Shown in pieces: positions 34,255-42,820 of a stretch of 64,000 nucleotides of DNA. Source of the DNA: Enterovibrio calviensis DSM 14347 (lineage in GTDB: Bacteria; Pseudomonadota; Gammaproteobacteria; Enterobacterales; Vibrionaceae); assembly GCF_000621165.1 (NCBI RefSeq), contig NZ_JHZA01000008.1:62001-126000 (forward strand), written 5' to 3'. Position 1 is the stretch's first letter. Each line of letters starts with the position of its first letter. The notes under the pieces were generated by a model. It searched no databases. It was not told the origin of the DNA and saw nothing but the letters and a program-made list of their open reading frames with translations. A program made the position numbers and the translations under genes.

Positions 34255-35307
<1,053 letters not shown>

Positions 35308-39987: not shown

Positions 39988-40018
39988 AAAACCCAGTCTC
40001 GCGCTGGGTTTTCTTTTT
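39988..40018 (+). terminator. intrinsic terminator of the MCP-binding protein operon
   Basis: AAAACCCAG / CTGGGTTTT stem with a 7-base loop and a T-rich tail. The remaining 280 bases before 40302 contain an inverted repeat ATTCC-ATATG-GGAAT (near 40171) and a TATAAT at about 40261 that may belong to the next gene. Confidence 0.88.
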
Positions 40019-40301
40019 TCCATCGCGCTTGCATGGTCAAACATTAATCAGCATCAAAAACGACGACTGTTACACGATCACGCCCTAAGCGTTACCAGTG
40101 TTGCACCTTGTCGCTAAACACCAACATGTCACACCCTAAAGTCACCCTCTTTTTACCTCGCAATAACCCTTAATTCCATATGGGAATATGATATTTAGTT
40201 TTCATCTAGTATCACGTAGCAACTATTGATCTCATTCACGTTTCGCTTTTTCGGGCTCTCTATAATCAGCCCCGAATTCCACTTTTAACTGTTGAAGACC
40301 T

Positions 40302-41126
40302 ATGAACACAGAAGAAAACAAAAGCGGGCAAGCTCGCGTCGTTATGACCAGTGTTATTGCTGTATCTGCCCTGATTTTCATTTCTCAGTTTTTAATCGGC
40401 ACCCAGAAAATTGACTTGGGTTTTGCCACGATCTCGATTCTACCTATGCTATTTGCCGTGATGATCGGCATGGGCCTGTCTGTAAACTGGACCAAAACCA
40501 AAGTCCAAGCGTGGGGCAAACTCTTCACTGAAAAAGAAGAAGGCTTCTGCGGCAAGATGGTTGGTTACTGCTTGCTGGTTCTGGGCACCCAGTACGCTGG
40601 TATGATCATCCCTAACCTAGACATGATTATTGACGCGGGCGTTCCGCTTCTTTTCCAAGAGCTCGGTAACCTTCTTCCTATCCTTATTGCCGTACCACTT
40701 GCTGTTAAATTCGGTTTTGGCCGTAAAACCATTGGCGCATGTTCTTCTATCAGCCGCGAACCTTCTATCGCCGTTGTTCAAGGCAAATTTGGTACAGGCA
40801 GCCCTGAGTATGTTGGCGTGCTTGCTATCTACCTTTGCGGTTCAGTGATCGGCACCTTGTGGTTCAGCGTGCTAGGCAGTATTGCACCGCTAACTGGTCT
40901 TCACCCACTGGCACTGGCTGCGGGTTCAGGCGTAGGTAGTGGCTCAATGCTAAGTGCTGCATCTGGCGCACTGGTATCGGGTCTTGATCCTGAAATGGCG
41001 AAGCAAGTTCTAAGTATTGCTGCTGCCTCTAACCTGCTTTCTTCTGTACTTGGCGCACTGTCACTGACCTTCTTGGGTCTGCCACTTGCTGAGTTCGTCT
41101 ACAAAATTTGCAACAAAGGTAAATAA
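40302..41126 (+). CDS. DUF3100-like membrane protein, larger part
   Basis: 274-residue integral membrane protein with about 8 hydrophobic helices. Conserved-looking loops include GFGRKTIGACSSISREPSIAV and the glycine/serine-rich AAGSGVGSGSMLSAASGALV, the type of re-entrant motif seen in carriers. I relate it to DUF3100 from memory. It is followed after 3 bases by a second, smaller membrane protein and then an M20 amidohydrolase, so the pair is probably a two-subunit transporter for the hydrolase substrate or product. Specificity unknown. Confidence 0.7.
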   Translation: MNTEENKSGQARVVMTSVIAVSALIFISQFLIGTQKIDLGFATISILPMLFAVMIGMGLSVNWTKTKVQAWGKLFTEKEEGFCGKMVGYCLLVLGTQYAGMIIPNLDMIIDAGVPLLFQELGNLLPILIAVPLAVKFGFGRKTIGACSSISREPSIAVVQGKFGTGSPEYVGVLAIYLCGSVIGTLWFSVLGSIAPLTGLHPLALAAGSGVGSGSMLSAASGALVSGLDPEMAKQVLSIAAASNLLSSVLGALSLTFLGLPLAEFVYKICNKGK

Positions 41127-41129
41127 GCC

Positions 41130-41579
41130 ATGAAAGCCATTCTGAATGATATGAAGCTGGTCTCGCTTGCGATTGTACTAGCAGGTTTTACCCAGTTTCT
41201 GACTAACGGCACTGCGCCACTAGAAATGGTGAACAGCTTTGTTGCCATGTCTGTGATTGTGTTTCTTTCGCTGGTTGCTAAGAAGTTCATCCCTTCTTCA
41301 CTGCCAACGTTTGCCTACGCGACCATCATCGGCATTCTGATTTGTTTGCCTGAAACGCCGATTCGTACCTACTTCCTAGAGTCAGTCGGTAAGATCCAGT
41401 TCCTTTCAGTGTGTGTGCCATTGCTGGCGTTTGCAGGTCTGTCTGTTGGCGGTCAAATGGAAGAACTTAAGAAGATGTCTTGGAAGGTTATTGTCATCTT
41501 CCTTATCGTCGCAACTAGCTGCTTCTTTGGCGCATCAATGATTGCCCAAATCGGCTTCCAAATGAAAGGAATCATCTAA
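41130..41579 (+). CDS. DUF3100-like membrane protein, smaller partner
   Basis: 149 residues with four to five hydrophobic helices and no soluble domain. Recognisable patches are VAKKFIPSSLPTFAYATIIG and LLAFAGLSVGGQMEELKKMSW. It lies 3 bases after the larger membrane protein, and its stop overlaps the M20 start (TAATG). In other genomes the two parts may be one polypeptide; I could not verify this. Function is inferred only from context. Confidence 0.65.
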   Translation: MKAILNDMKLVSLAIVLAGFTQFLTNGTAPLEMVNSFVAMSVIVFLSLVAKKFIPSSLPTFAYATIIGILICLPETPIRTYFLESVGKIQFLSVCVPLLAFAGLSVGGQMEELKKMSWKVIVIFLIVATSCFFGASMIAQIGFQMKGII

Positions 41580-42766
41580 TGTCAGCGAAATACAGCCAAT
41601 TTAATCTAGACAGCAAACTGCTTGAGCTACACGCTTTCAGCGTGAACACTCGCCGTGATTTGCACCAGATCCCAGAAGCATCAGGCCAAGAGTTCAAAAC
41701 GACAGCATACTGCCAAGCATTGATGACTGAGCTAGGCTATGCCCTCACCACATACGAAGGTTTTACCGGCTTTATCGCTGACCTAACCATTGATGAGAGC
41801 GTGGGTCGTGTGGCTTTCCGTGCTGACATGGATGCACTGGAAATGGACGACATGACAGAGAACGATTACCGCTCTCAGCATGACGGCTGTTCACACAACT
41901 GTGGTCATGACACGCACATGGCGATCATCCTGACTACGGCTAAATACCTGTCTGAAAACAAAGAAGCCTTGAAGCACAACGTTCGCTTTGTGTTCCAAAT
42001 GGCAGAAGAAGACATGCGTGTTCCAGGCGCTAGCAAGATGGTAGAGCTAGGCTGCATGAACGGTGTATCTGAAGTGTACGCACTACACAATGATGCTGCG
42101 CTTGAATACGGCATGGTTAAAATCAACAACGGCATCATGTCGTCGTACGGTTCTGCATGGACGTTGGATGTAAACGGTGTGTCTGCACACGGTTCTACGC
42201 CGCAAAAAGGTCTGGATGCAATCCGCGAAGCAAGCCGTATCATCATGGACATGGATTACATCGTAGCGAAACGCACCAACCCATTCAGCCCTGCTGTTTT
42301 CGGTTGTGGCATGTTCAACGGTGGCAGCATTCCGAATGCGATTCCTGACCATGCGCAAGCACGCGGTACTATCCGTGCAATGGACGCTGAAACTGACAAG
42401 ATCCTAAAAGACAGCTTCGAAGGCATCGTAAAAGAAAGCGAAATCCGTGGCTTTAAAACTACCATGGAATGCGAAGGCTACCCTGCGGTTATTAACCACC
42501 CTGACGCTTACCAACGCGTCGTAGATGCGGCACGCGCTATCGTGCCTGCTGACCGACTGGATCCGAACGGCAACCCAATGACAGGTTCTGAAGATTTCAG
42601 CCTGATGGTGAACGCTGCAGAAAATCAAAAAGGCGCGATGTTCTTCCTAGGTAGCGGTAACAAAGAAGCGGGTATCTGTAACTACCTGCATTCTAACCCT
42701 TACTACGTGGATGACGATTTCTTGCTAGTGGGCGCACAGATCTTTATCCATATCGCCTGCCACTAA
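41579..42766 (+). CDS. M20D-family amidohydrolase (aminoacylase/hippurate-hydrolase type)
   Basis: Cytoplasmic metal-dependent hydrolase that cleaves N-acyl amino acids or related amides. It has 395 residues. Metal ligands are visible: C108 and H110 in NCGHDTHM, E143-E144 in QMAEEDMRVPG, with RADMDALEM before them. The lid/dimerisation domain (about 180-290, containing GVSAHGSTPQKGLDAI) and the C-terminal metal histidine in CNYLHSNPYY are intact. AAAGGAATC lies 7 bases upstream. It is the third gene of the DUF3100-like unit; probably the peptidase half of an uptake-and-cleave system for an acylated amino acid. Confidence 0.9.
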   Translation: MSAKYSQFNLDSKLLELHAFSVNTRRDLHQIPEASGQEFKTTAYCQALMTELGYALTTYEGFTGFIADLTIDESVGRVAFRADMDALEMDDMTENDYRSQHDGCSHNCGHDTHMAIILTTAKYLSENKEALKHNVRFVFQMAEEDMRVPGASKMVELGCMNGVSEVYALHNDAALEYGMVKINNGIMSSYGSAWTLDVNGVSAHGSTPQKGLDAIREASRIIMDMDYIVAKRTNPFSPAVFGCGMFNGGSIPNAIPDHAQARGTIRAMDAETDKILKDSFEGIVKESEIRGFKTTMECEGYPAVINHPDAYQRVVDAARAIVPADRLDPNGNPMTGSEDFSLMVNAAENQKGAMFFLGSGNKEAGICNYLHSNPYYVDDDFLLVGAQIFIHIACH

Positions 42767-42788: not shown

Positions 42789-42820
42789 AAAAGGTCAGAT
42801 GCTTGCGCACTGGCCTTTTT
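42789..42820 (+). terminator. intrinsic terminator of the DUF3100-M20 unit
   Basis: AAAAGGTCAG pairs with CTGGCCTTTT (one T-G wobble), 11-base loop, T tail. Confidence 0.85.

What the first reader, a model, noticed from the sequence alone, without database searches (positions are those of the whole stretch)
40302..42766. Split DUF3100-like membrane pair coupled to an M20 amidohydrolase
Two membrane proteins (274 and 149 residues) and an M20D enzyme form a tight operon (3-base gap, then overlapping stop/start). This resembles uptake-and-cleave systems such as AbgT-AbgAB but with an uncharacterised transporter family. It is a good candidate for an undescribed route for acylated or aromatic-conjugated amino acids.
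Basis: partly seen in the sequence, partly recalled or inferred. Interest (0 to 1): 0.7.

Follow-up and report, generated by a model that had tools for sequence, protein, structure and literature searches.

The report
Predicted two-part acyl-amino-acid uptake system
Three neighbouring genes in a bacterium look like a two-piece membrane importer plus the enzyme that splits what it brings in, probably small amino acids carrying an acyl cap; the importer family has no known function, and its neighbour genes point to a substrate that can be tested.

Summary
In detail: DUF3100 (40302-41126), a 149-residue membrane protein (41130-41579) and an M20D amidohydrolase (41579-42766) form a tight operon. 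Only the first ORF is DUF3100. The small partner has no Pfam family, yet follows DUF3100 in 93 of 93 loci, 14 times fused: one carrier in two pieces. Profile comparison puts it near the CPA/AT families PSE/YeiH (87%) and GltS (65%), not AbgT (0.2%). An M20 gene lies within 3.6 kb, same strand, in 88 of 96 loci, and within 3.1 kb in 27 of 32 genomes. M20s of distant subfamilies have been swapped in, so the coupling looks selected. New clue: in 33 of 47 loci of the window's clade, though not in its own genus, a CysB paralogue adjoins; Proteus and Aeromonas copies examined keep 7-8 of 9 N-acetylserine-pocket residues, others 3-4. Other lineages add L-serine deaminase, HIBADH-like or threonine enzymes. 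I propose import and deacylation of small N-acyl amino acids, N-acetyl-L-serine first. AlphaFold models were unusable; nothing biochemical is shown.

The parts
40302..41126 (+). DUF3100 membrane protein (274 aa), first and larger part of the carrier
   Evidence: PF11299 E 2.4e-76; six clear hydrophobic segments plus weak ones; E120, G122, R152, E153, G210, G212, S213, S215 and M216 among the residues invariant in 24 varied sequences
41130..41579 (+). 149-aa membrane protein, second part of the carrier (no Pfam family)
   Evidence: five hydrophobic segments; homologue adjacent or fused in 93 of 93 loci; pairwise identities follow DUF3100's, r = 0.94 over 23 loci
41579..42766 (+). M20D amidohydrolase, predicted N-acyl-amino-acid deacylase
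   Evidence: TIGR01891 279.8 bits; best solved match YxeP 1ysj; C108, H110, E143, E144, H170, H371 invariant in 40 of 40 cassette M20s
40173..40187 (+). perfect inverted repeat ATTCC-N5-GGAAT with T-N11-A, 129 bases before DUF3100; candidate regulator site
   Evidence: at -128/-129 in 11 of 11 Enterovibrio/Grimontia loci, arms invariant while the spacer varies (4 spacers); not found within one mismatch in 320 bases upstream in the other 36 clade loci; only exact copy in the window
42789..42819 (+). hairpin with T run, probable terminator of the operon
   Evidence: -16.1 kcal/mol, z -4.5; chosen by eye, not listed by the scan
39988..40012 (+). terminator-like hairpin separating the operon from the upstream binding-protein gene
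   Evidence: z -5.9
34255..35250 (-). true CysB, 5 kb away; possible regulator in this genus, which lacks the CysB paralogue found beside the cassette in sister genera
   Evidence: NF009326 578.9 bits, cut-off 436; N-acetylserine pocket 9 of 9

Best explanation
DUF3100 and the small protein are the two halves of one secondary carrier of the CPA/AT type (PSE/YeiH- and GltS-like). It imports small N-acylated amino acids; the co-made M20D enzyme removes the acyl group in the cytoplasm, and the free amino acid enters metabolism. For the window's clade the most likely substrate is N-acetyl-L-serine or a close relative, sensed by CysB or by a CysB paralogue. Shown by computation: gene order, partner conservation, natural fusions, a distant CPA/AT profile similarity, intact M20 catalytic residues, linkage of M20, CysB-type and serine/threonine genes. 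Inferred: import direction, ion coupling, substrate, regulation.
For: Partner in 93 of 93 loci, fused in 14, with at least 3 changes between fused and split on the tree. Pair versus PSE: 86.6%, collinear over both parts; versus GltS: 65.4%; in the reverse direction 77.6% and 79.8%; no reversed profile passed 1.3%, and none of 30 block-shuffled PSE or GltS profiles reached the real score. M20 on the same strand within 3.6 kb in 88 of 96 loci, within 3.1 kb in 27 of 32 genomes, and beside DUF3100 in Fusobacterium, Leuconostoc and an archaeon. M20 exchanged while the carrier stayed: the E. coli plasmid carrier is 72/75% identical to Salmonella's but its M20 only 40%, against 66% to the window lineage's. 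CysB paralogue beside the cassette in 33 of 47 loci of the window's clade. Serine/threonine neighbours elsewhere: L-serine ammonia-lyase 4 of 51 and HIBADH-like dehydrogenase 21 of 51 loci, threonine dehydrogenase plus Kbl in one, TdcA regulators in E. coli, Salmonella and Hafnia. A B. subtilis M20 N-acetylcysteine deacetylase (ScmP) keeps 2.8% activity on N-acetylserine (PMC12757645, passages).
Against: No usable structure (pLDDT 49 and 41). The relationship to PSE is a weak profile signal: the window clade alone gives 11% for PSE (75.5% for GltS); one of 30 shuffled LrgB profiles reached 47%, so single values below that mean little; and the control pair PSE-2HCT, related according to PMC8396727, was missed by the same method (0.7%). 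M20 is missing from 8 of 96 loci and from 5 of 32 genomes. The serine/threonine genes lie in other lineages, not in the window's clade. The HIBADH-like enzyme passes no equivalog and its best solved matches are 2-hydroxymethylglutarate dehydrogenase and tartronate semialdehyde reductase. The CysB paralogue is absent from 14 of 47 clade loci, the window's own genus among them, and 25 of the 33 with it are Proteus or Aeromonas. Its pocket is altered in Photobacterium, Psychromonas, Thaumasiovibrio, Grimontia hollisae and L094, and where it is kept the excess over random residue sets is modest (1.3-2.4% of sets reach 8 of 9; about 10% reach 7 of 9; Cbl, a control, keeps 6 of 9).
Confidence: 0.55

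Rival explanations
1. Sulfur scavenging: the carrier imports N-acyl-cysteine or related N-acyl thio amino acids (mercapturate-like), and the M20D enzyme releases cysteine, under CysB-type control.
For: Best solved M20 match is YxeP, which I recall to be ScmP, a specific N-acetylcysteine deacetylase (PMC12757645, passages). CysB-family regulator beside the cassette and true CysB nearby in the window. The paralogue could read N-acetylserine as a sulfur-shortage signal rather than as substrate. A haloarchaeal locus has a sulfurtransferase next to the pair (L115).
Against: Apart from L115 I noticed no sulfur gene among the annotated neighbours, though many recurrent neighbours stayed unnamed; L-serine ammonia-lyase, Tdh-Kbl and TdcA fit hydroxy amino acids better. 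The best solved match is a weak guide: the window M20 clade stands on a long stem (1.87 plus 1.11 changes per column).
Confidence: 0.2
2. Broad or aromatic N-acyl amino acid uptake (hippurate-like, indole-acetyl or p-aminobenzoyl conjugates).
For: TIGR01891-type relatives include plant IAA-amino-acid hydrolase (1xmb) and N-alpha-acyl-glutamine aminoacylase (6slf), both in the hit list.
Against: I noticed no aromatic catabolic gene among the annotated neighbours (not all clusters were named); AbgT is not similar to the carrier.
Confidence: 0.12
3. The carrier moves the free amino acid (import or efflux), and M20 only supplies or trims it; the carrier itself does not take N-acyl substrates.
For: Of the 8 loci without M20, five have HIBADH-like plus aldehyde dehydrogenase (L085, L087, L088, L093, L112) and one an ACC-deaminase-like enzyme with Lrp (L118). 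GltS carries glutamate and LysO lysine (family knowledge).
Against: M20 in 88 of 96 loci, including 16 of the 21 with HIBADH; pairing with distant M20 subfamilies.
Confidence: 0.2

Closest known systems
PSE family (PF03601, YeiH) of the CPA/AT clan
   Same: best profile match of the joined pair, 86.6%, collinear; the small protein alone aligns weakly (20.5%) to the C-terminal part of PSE
   Different: PSE is one chain; no PF03601 hit for 14 joined or fused proteins at E up to 10. YeiH is linked to sulfite resistance in Salmonella (PMC12880088, listing and start of abstract).
GltS glutamate symporter (PF03616)
   Same: profile match 65.4% (75.5% for the window clade alone)
   Different: one chain; no PF03616 hit; no hydrolase partner known to me
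LrgAB and LysO two-part carriers
   Same: also exist as split and as fused forms (PMC8396727, section 9); DUF3100 alone scores 7.7% with LysO, above its 30 shuffles, and 11.9% with LrgB, reached by 1 of 30
   Different: the joined pair scores only 2-3%, within the shuffled range; in those families the small part comes first when fused (recalled), here it comes last
AbgT-AbgAB p-aminobenzoyl-glutamate uptake and hydrolysis
   Same: works alike: carrier plus M20 hydrolase (AbgT as its carrier is recalled; hydrolase in PMC5082436, listing and start of abstract)
   Different: carrier not similar (0.2%); one M20 gene, not two
B. subtilis N-acetylcysteine deacetylases ScmP, YhaA, YtnL
   Same: M20 family enzymes (PMC12757645, passages); YxeP is the best solved match
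   Different: those belong to cysteine-recovery clusters; the passages seen name no transporter of this kind

Membership tests
DUF3100 (PF11299) | profile score over the curated cut-off (27 bits) | tested here: met
   256.7 bits
CPA/AT transporter superfamily | significant profile similarity to member families | tested here: met
   PSE 86.6%, GltS 65.4%, 0 of 30 shuffles reach either; decoys AbgT 0.2%, GntP 0.6%. Against: 2HCT, a true member, 0.1%; one shuffled LrgB profile reached 47%
CPA/AT transporter superfamily | core domain with two broken or re-entrant helices plus scaffold domain | tested here: inconclusive
   AlphaFold models unusable; hydropathy gives 11 clear segments plus weak ones
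PSE (PF03601) | PF03601 profile over cut-off | tested here: not met
   no hit at E up to 10 in 14 joined or fused proteins
AbgT (PF03806) | PF03806 profile or profile-profile similarity | tested here: not met
   no Pfam hit; 0.2%; 6.3% for the fusion-only profile
LrgAB / LysO | profile similarity of the two parts to LrgB/LrgA or LysB/LysA | tested here: inconclusive
   pair 2.2% (LrgB) and 3.3% (LysO), within shuffles; DUF3100 alone 11.9% and 7.7%, at or above its shuffles; fusions versus LrgA 17.6%
M20D amidohydrolases (TIGR01891) | score over cut-off and intact catalytic residues | tested here: met
   279.8 of 153.75 bits; six residues invariant in 40 of 40; their role as metal ligands and base is recalled
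CpsA or DoeB2 equivalogs | score over the equivalog cut-off | tested here: not met
   256.6 of 500 and 224.8 of 550 bits
N-acyl-amino-acid importer | transport of an N-acyl amino acid | not testable with these tools
   needs uptake or growth assays

The most novel reading that the evidence does not exclude
DUF3100 plus its unnamed partner is a new two-component carrier family of the CPA/AT superfamily dedicated to N-acyl hydroxy amino acids: a widespread, horizontally moving N-acetyl-L-serine (or N-acetylthreonine) utilisation cassette in which a CysB paralogue has been turned from a sulfur regulator into a substrate sensor.
Probability: 0.28. Interest if true: 0.75.

Novelty: new variant of a known kind. 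Interest (0 to 1): 0.58.

Why it matters
It would give a function to a domain of unknown function found here in Pseudomonadota, Fusobacteriota, Bacillota and haloarchaea, name its missing second half, and define a nutrient route for N-acylated amino acids, which eukaryotic protein N-termini would supply (my inference). N-acetylserine is the inducer of CysB; an organism that eats it would tie nutrient use to the sulfur signal, which a growth test can decide.

Tried and rejected
AlphaFold of the joined pair (51 rows) and of DUF3100 alone (39 rows) gave mean pLDDT 49 and 41; both models were set aside and no fold search was run. The tool admits only the window and loci of the search for related loci or the DNA search, which here are close relatives. 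An LrgB/LrgA or LysO relationship, my first idea after reading PMC8396727, was tested: no support for the pair, a faint one for DUF3100 alone. Viral contigs and phage records gave no relative. The inverted repeat ATTCC-N5-GGAAT was compared with the E. coli cysK/cysP region: 3 matches at two mismatches, fewer than the chance mean of 7.3, so I do not call it a CysB box. Solved structures: nothing for DUF3100 below E 1.9. Phenylserine operon (PMC2963168, passages): the HIBADH-like enzyme there is D-phenylserine dehydrogenase, with an MFS transporter; not the same system.

Rows dropped or thinned before counts: L053-L077 and L001 (short duplicates of L078-L102 and of the window) and, for the partner count, L046-L048 (DUF3100 frame broken in draft assemblies; a partner homologue is present in all three). 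L103-L108 are six genomes of one genus (g235) whose loci match those of the Aeromonas loci, so the 93 and 96 are not independent. L273 and L274 were fetched later and are in no count. The 51-locus neighbourhood set keeps 8 of the 47 clade loci; locus flanks differ (about 4 to 6 kb, some shorter), so absences near the edges are soft. The M20 tree left out L046, L047, L113 and L103-L108 and kept 35 of 87 M20s after thinning; its 20 non-adjacent M20s are a hand pick out of 90 over-cut-off hits. Pocket statistics used 12 of the 34 cassette CysB paralogues (33 plus L094; L103-L108 not counted).
Full report
Observation. The three ORFs, the 3-base gap and the one-base stop/start overlap are as described. 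ORF 1 is DUF3100, ORF 2 has no family, ORF 3 is an M20D amidohydrolase. The pattern scan of the region found no more promoter-like (4 against 4.1) or terminator-like sites (3 against 3.1) than its shuffles; two hairpins with T runs, one before and one after the operon, fold well below their shuffles.

One carrier in two pieces. I gathered 47 loci from named genomes, 31 from unnamed DUF3100-positive genomes and 18 plasmid loci. All 96 hold a homologue of the 149-residue protein. In the 93 with an intact DUF3100 frame it directly follows or overlaps the end of DUF3100: 79 as a separate gene, 14 in the same ORF. Three such fusions are annotated as single DUF3100 proteins of 444, 427 and 447 residues (Klebsiella, Psychrobacter, Variovorax). 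The fused state needs at least 3 changes on the DUF3100 tree, and the window's clade stands on a branch of 1.86 changes per column with full support. Pairwise identities of the two parts correlate at 0.94 over 23 split loci; with M20 the figure is 0.82.

What kind of carrier. Sequence search finds no solved relative and Pfam none beyond DUF3100 that is credible, in 14 joined or fused proteins at E up to 10. hhalign of the joined family (46 rows after thinning 93) against PSE (24 rows) gives 86.6%, collinear from end to end; against GltS (7 rows) 65.4%; against LysO 3.3%, LrgB 2.2%, AbgT 0.2%, GntP 0.6%, 2HCT 0.1%. In the reverse direction PSE gives 77.6% and GltS 79.8%; PSE against GltS, two recognised CPA/AT families, gives 51%; no reversed profile passed 1.3%. 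None of 30 block-shuffled PSE or GltS profiles reached the real score. Against this: the window clade alone reaches 11% with PSE but 75.5% with GltS, and one of 30 shuffled LrgB profiles reached 47%; the fusion-only profile gives 6.3% with AbgT; 2HCT is missed both by the pair and by PSE itself, so the method is not sensitive and its negatives mean little. DUF3100 alone gives 87.0% with PSE, and 7.7% with LysO and 11.9% with LrgB, at or above their shuffles. Hydropathy shows six clear segments in DUF3100 with weaker ones between, and five in the partner. Two AlphaFold runs gave unusable models. I therefore claim superfamily kinship, not membership in PSE or GltS. PMC8396727 (passages; section 9) describes LrgAB and LysO as CPA/AT carriers that also occur split or fused; it cannot mention DUF3100 in its text, since the library search for that word found no paper, nor for PF11299.

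The M20 partner. A profile built from cassette M20s finds one on the same strand within 3.6 kb in 88 of 96 loci; the eight without are L085, L087, L088, L089, L093, L112, L115 and L118. By genome, comparing the coordinates by hand, 27 of 32 DUF3100-positive genomes (15 of 19 genera) have a TIGR01891 hit over cut-off within 3.1 kb; the five without are G046, G207, G249, G354 and G167. DUF3100-partner-M20 also stands in E. coli, Hafnia, Salmonella and Bartonella plasmids and, in tight order, in the archaeon Haladaptatus pallidirubidus, where Pfam confirms the M20; in the other Haladaptatus locus there is none. Fusobacterium and Leuconostoc put M20 first (M20 by Pfam). Six residues are invariant in 40 of 40 cassette M20s (their catalytic roles are recalled). 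On a tree of 35 cassette M20s and 20 M20s from elsewhere in the same genomes, the window-type enzymes form an exclusive, long-stemmed clade together with those of Hafnia and Salmonella, while other cassettes use distant subfamilies; at least 3 label changes are forced by well-supported branches. The E. coli plasmid carrier (L049) is 72/75% identical to Salmonella's (L110), but its M20 is 40% identical to Salmonella's and 66% to that of L002, the window's near twin; L102 shows the same with 54-60% DUF3100 and 20-21% M20 identity to L095-L098. Exchange of enzymes beside one carrier argues that some M20 is needed there.

Clues to the substrate. In 51 varied loci, a HIBADH-like dehydrogenase occurs in 21, an aldehyde dehydrogenase in 18 and L-serine ammonia-lyase in 4 (in L078-L080 the dehydrogenases lie on the other strand). 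The lyase of L092 passes its NCBIfam equivalog (667.6 of 345.1 bits), and three of the four lyase loci (L090, L092, L109) show no dehydrogenase pair in the stretch held, as if the two were alternatives. Psychrobacter adds threonine dehydrogenase and Kbl, both over cut-off. The LysR genes of an E. coli, the Salmonella and the Hafnia plasmid locus pass the TdcA equivalog. The HIBADH-like enzyme tested (L081) passes no equivalog; its best solved matches are 2-hydroxymethylglutarate dehydrogenase and tartronate semialdehyde reductase, with 3obb and 3q3c lower down, which I recall to be PA0743, an L-serine dehydrogenase. So its substrate is open. These genes lie in other lineages than the window's.

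The CysB link. In the window's clade, scanning all 47 loci with a profile of five such regulators, I found a CysB-family paralogue within 2 kb of DUF3100 in 33: 11 Proteus, 14 Aeromonas, 4 Photobacterium, and one each of Moellerella, Psychromonas, Thaumasiovibrio and Grimontia hollisae; in 32 it is convergent, just after M20, and in L038 it is upstream. L094, of another clade, has one between the partner and the lyase. The five that built the profile score 299 to 393 bits, below the CysB cut-off of 436. The 14 without are L002-L007, L009, L010, L013, L024, L036 and L046-L048, which include all 8 Enterovibrio loci; ten of the 14 carry true CysB about 5 kb upstream, as does the window. PMC11329422 (passages) names nine residues lining the N-acetylserine pocket of CysB. 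Of these, the Proteus and Moellerella copies tested keep 8 at 49-51% domain identity, the four Aeromonas copies tested keep 7 or 8, E. coli Cbl keeps 6, Nac 1, and the Photobacterium, Psychromonas, Thaumasiovibrio and L094 copies keep 3-4 (12 of 34 paralogues). Between 1.3 and 2.4% of random nine-position sets reach 8 of 9, about 10% reach 7 of 9. The signal is suggestive, not proof, and the altered copies imply a different ligand there. Eleven of eleven Enterovibrio/Grimontia loci carry ATTCC-N5-GGAAT at -128/-129 with invariant arms and a varying spacer; the T-N11-A pattern of LysR sites fits it (recalled). It is not enriched in the E. coli cysK/cysP region. Proteus and Aeromonas share another upstream block, CATACCCCATGAAAAA, with some variation.

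Mechanism. I consider it most likely that the pair imports a small N-acyl amino acid and M20D deacylates it. PMC12757645 (passages) shows that M20 enzymes of B. subtilis do this with N-acetylcysteine, with 2.8% activity on N-acetylserine in one of them, ScmP. Whether the natural substrate is the serine or the cysteine derivative cannot be told from sequence; the serine/threonine neighbours in other lineages tip me to serine.

Distribution. DUF3100 is patchy: 17 of 398 sampled genomes of the phylum and 16 of 197 of the order, the window's genome counted in both; the same-family genomes listed there, all of one other genus, have none. In E. coli this cassette is rare and plasmid-borne: 8 of 5,426 complete genomes (near mode). 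No paper on DUF3100 was found, and a search joining N-acetylserine, CysB, paralog, deacetylase, uptake and operon listed three papers, none on this by title or start of abstract.

Noticed in passing
L022 8501-9541, L041 8516-9496, L042 8510-9481, L011 8632-9606, L094 7685-8647: CysB paralogues beside the cassette split into two pocket types: one like CysB (Proteus, Aeromonas) and one with I, A, Q/H replacing Q103, T149, E150 (Photobacterium, Psychromonas, Thaumasiovibrio, L094).
   Followed up: partly
window 40173-40187; L002-L010, L046, L048 at -128/-129 of DUF3100: Conserved inverted repeat ATTCC-N5-GGAAT with invariant arms and varying spacer.
   Followed up: partly
upstream of DUF3100 in the Proteus and Aeromonas loci aligned: Shared block CATACCCCATGAAAAA (with some variation) inside inverted repeats; a possible operator.
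   Followed up: no
L118 1823-2839 and 3776-5119: Variovorax fused DUF3100 carrier next to an ACC-deaminase-like enzyme and an Lrp-type regulator, without M20 in the stretch held.
   Followed up: no
L049 5923-9087, L122 3923-7336: Cassette with a LysR regulator (TdcA equivalog in L122) on conjugative E. coli plasmids, near F4-type fimbrial genes in L049; found in 8 of 5,426 complete E. coli genomes.
   Followed up: partly
L110 111-860: Gene annotated as enterotoxin A family about 3 kb from the cassette on a Salmonella plasmid.
   Followed up: no
L095-L101, L052, L116: These cassettes use a distant M20 subfamily, on a very long branch (3.5 changes per column, four of them in the tree); N and Q replace D111 and H113 in 8 and 9 of 40 cassette M20s, probably these by my reading.
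   Followed up: no
L274 3974-7885: Agrobacterium plasmid: fused DUF3100 carrier with a HIBADH-like gene upstream, an M20 on the other strand on each side and a gamma-glutamyltransferase.
   Followed up: no
G000:C9:102759-106229: Two tandem AbgT genes in the window's genome, one with an in-frame TAA.
   Followed up: no
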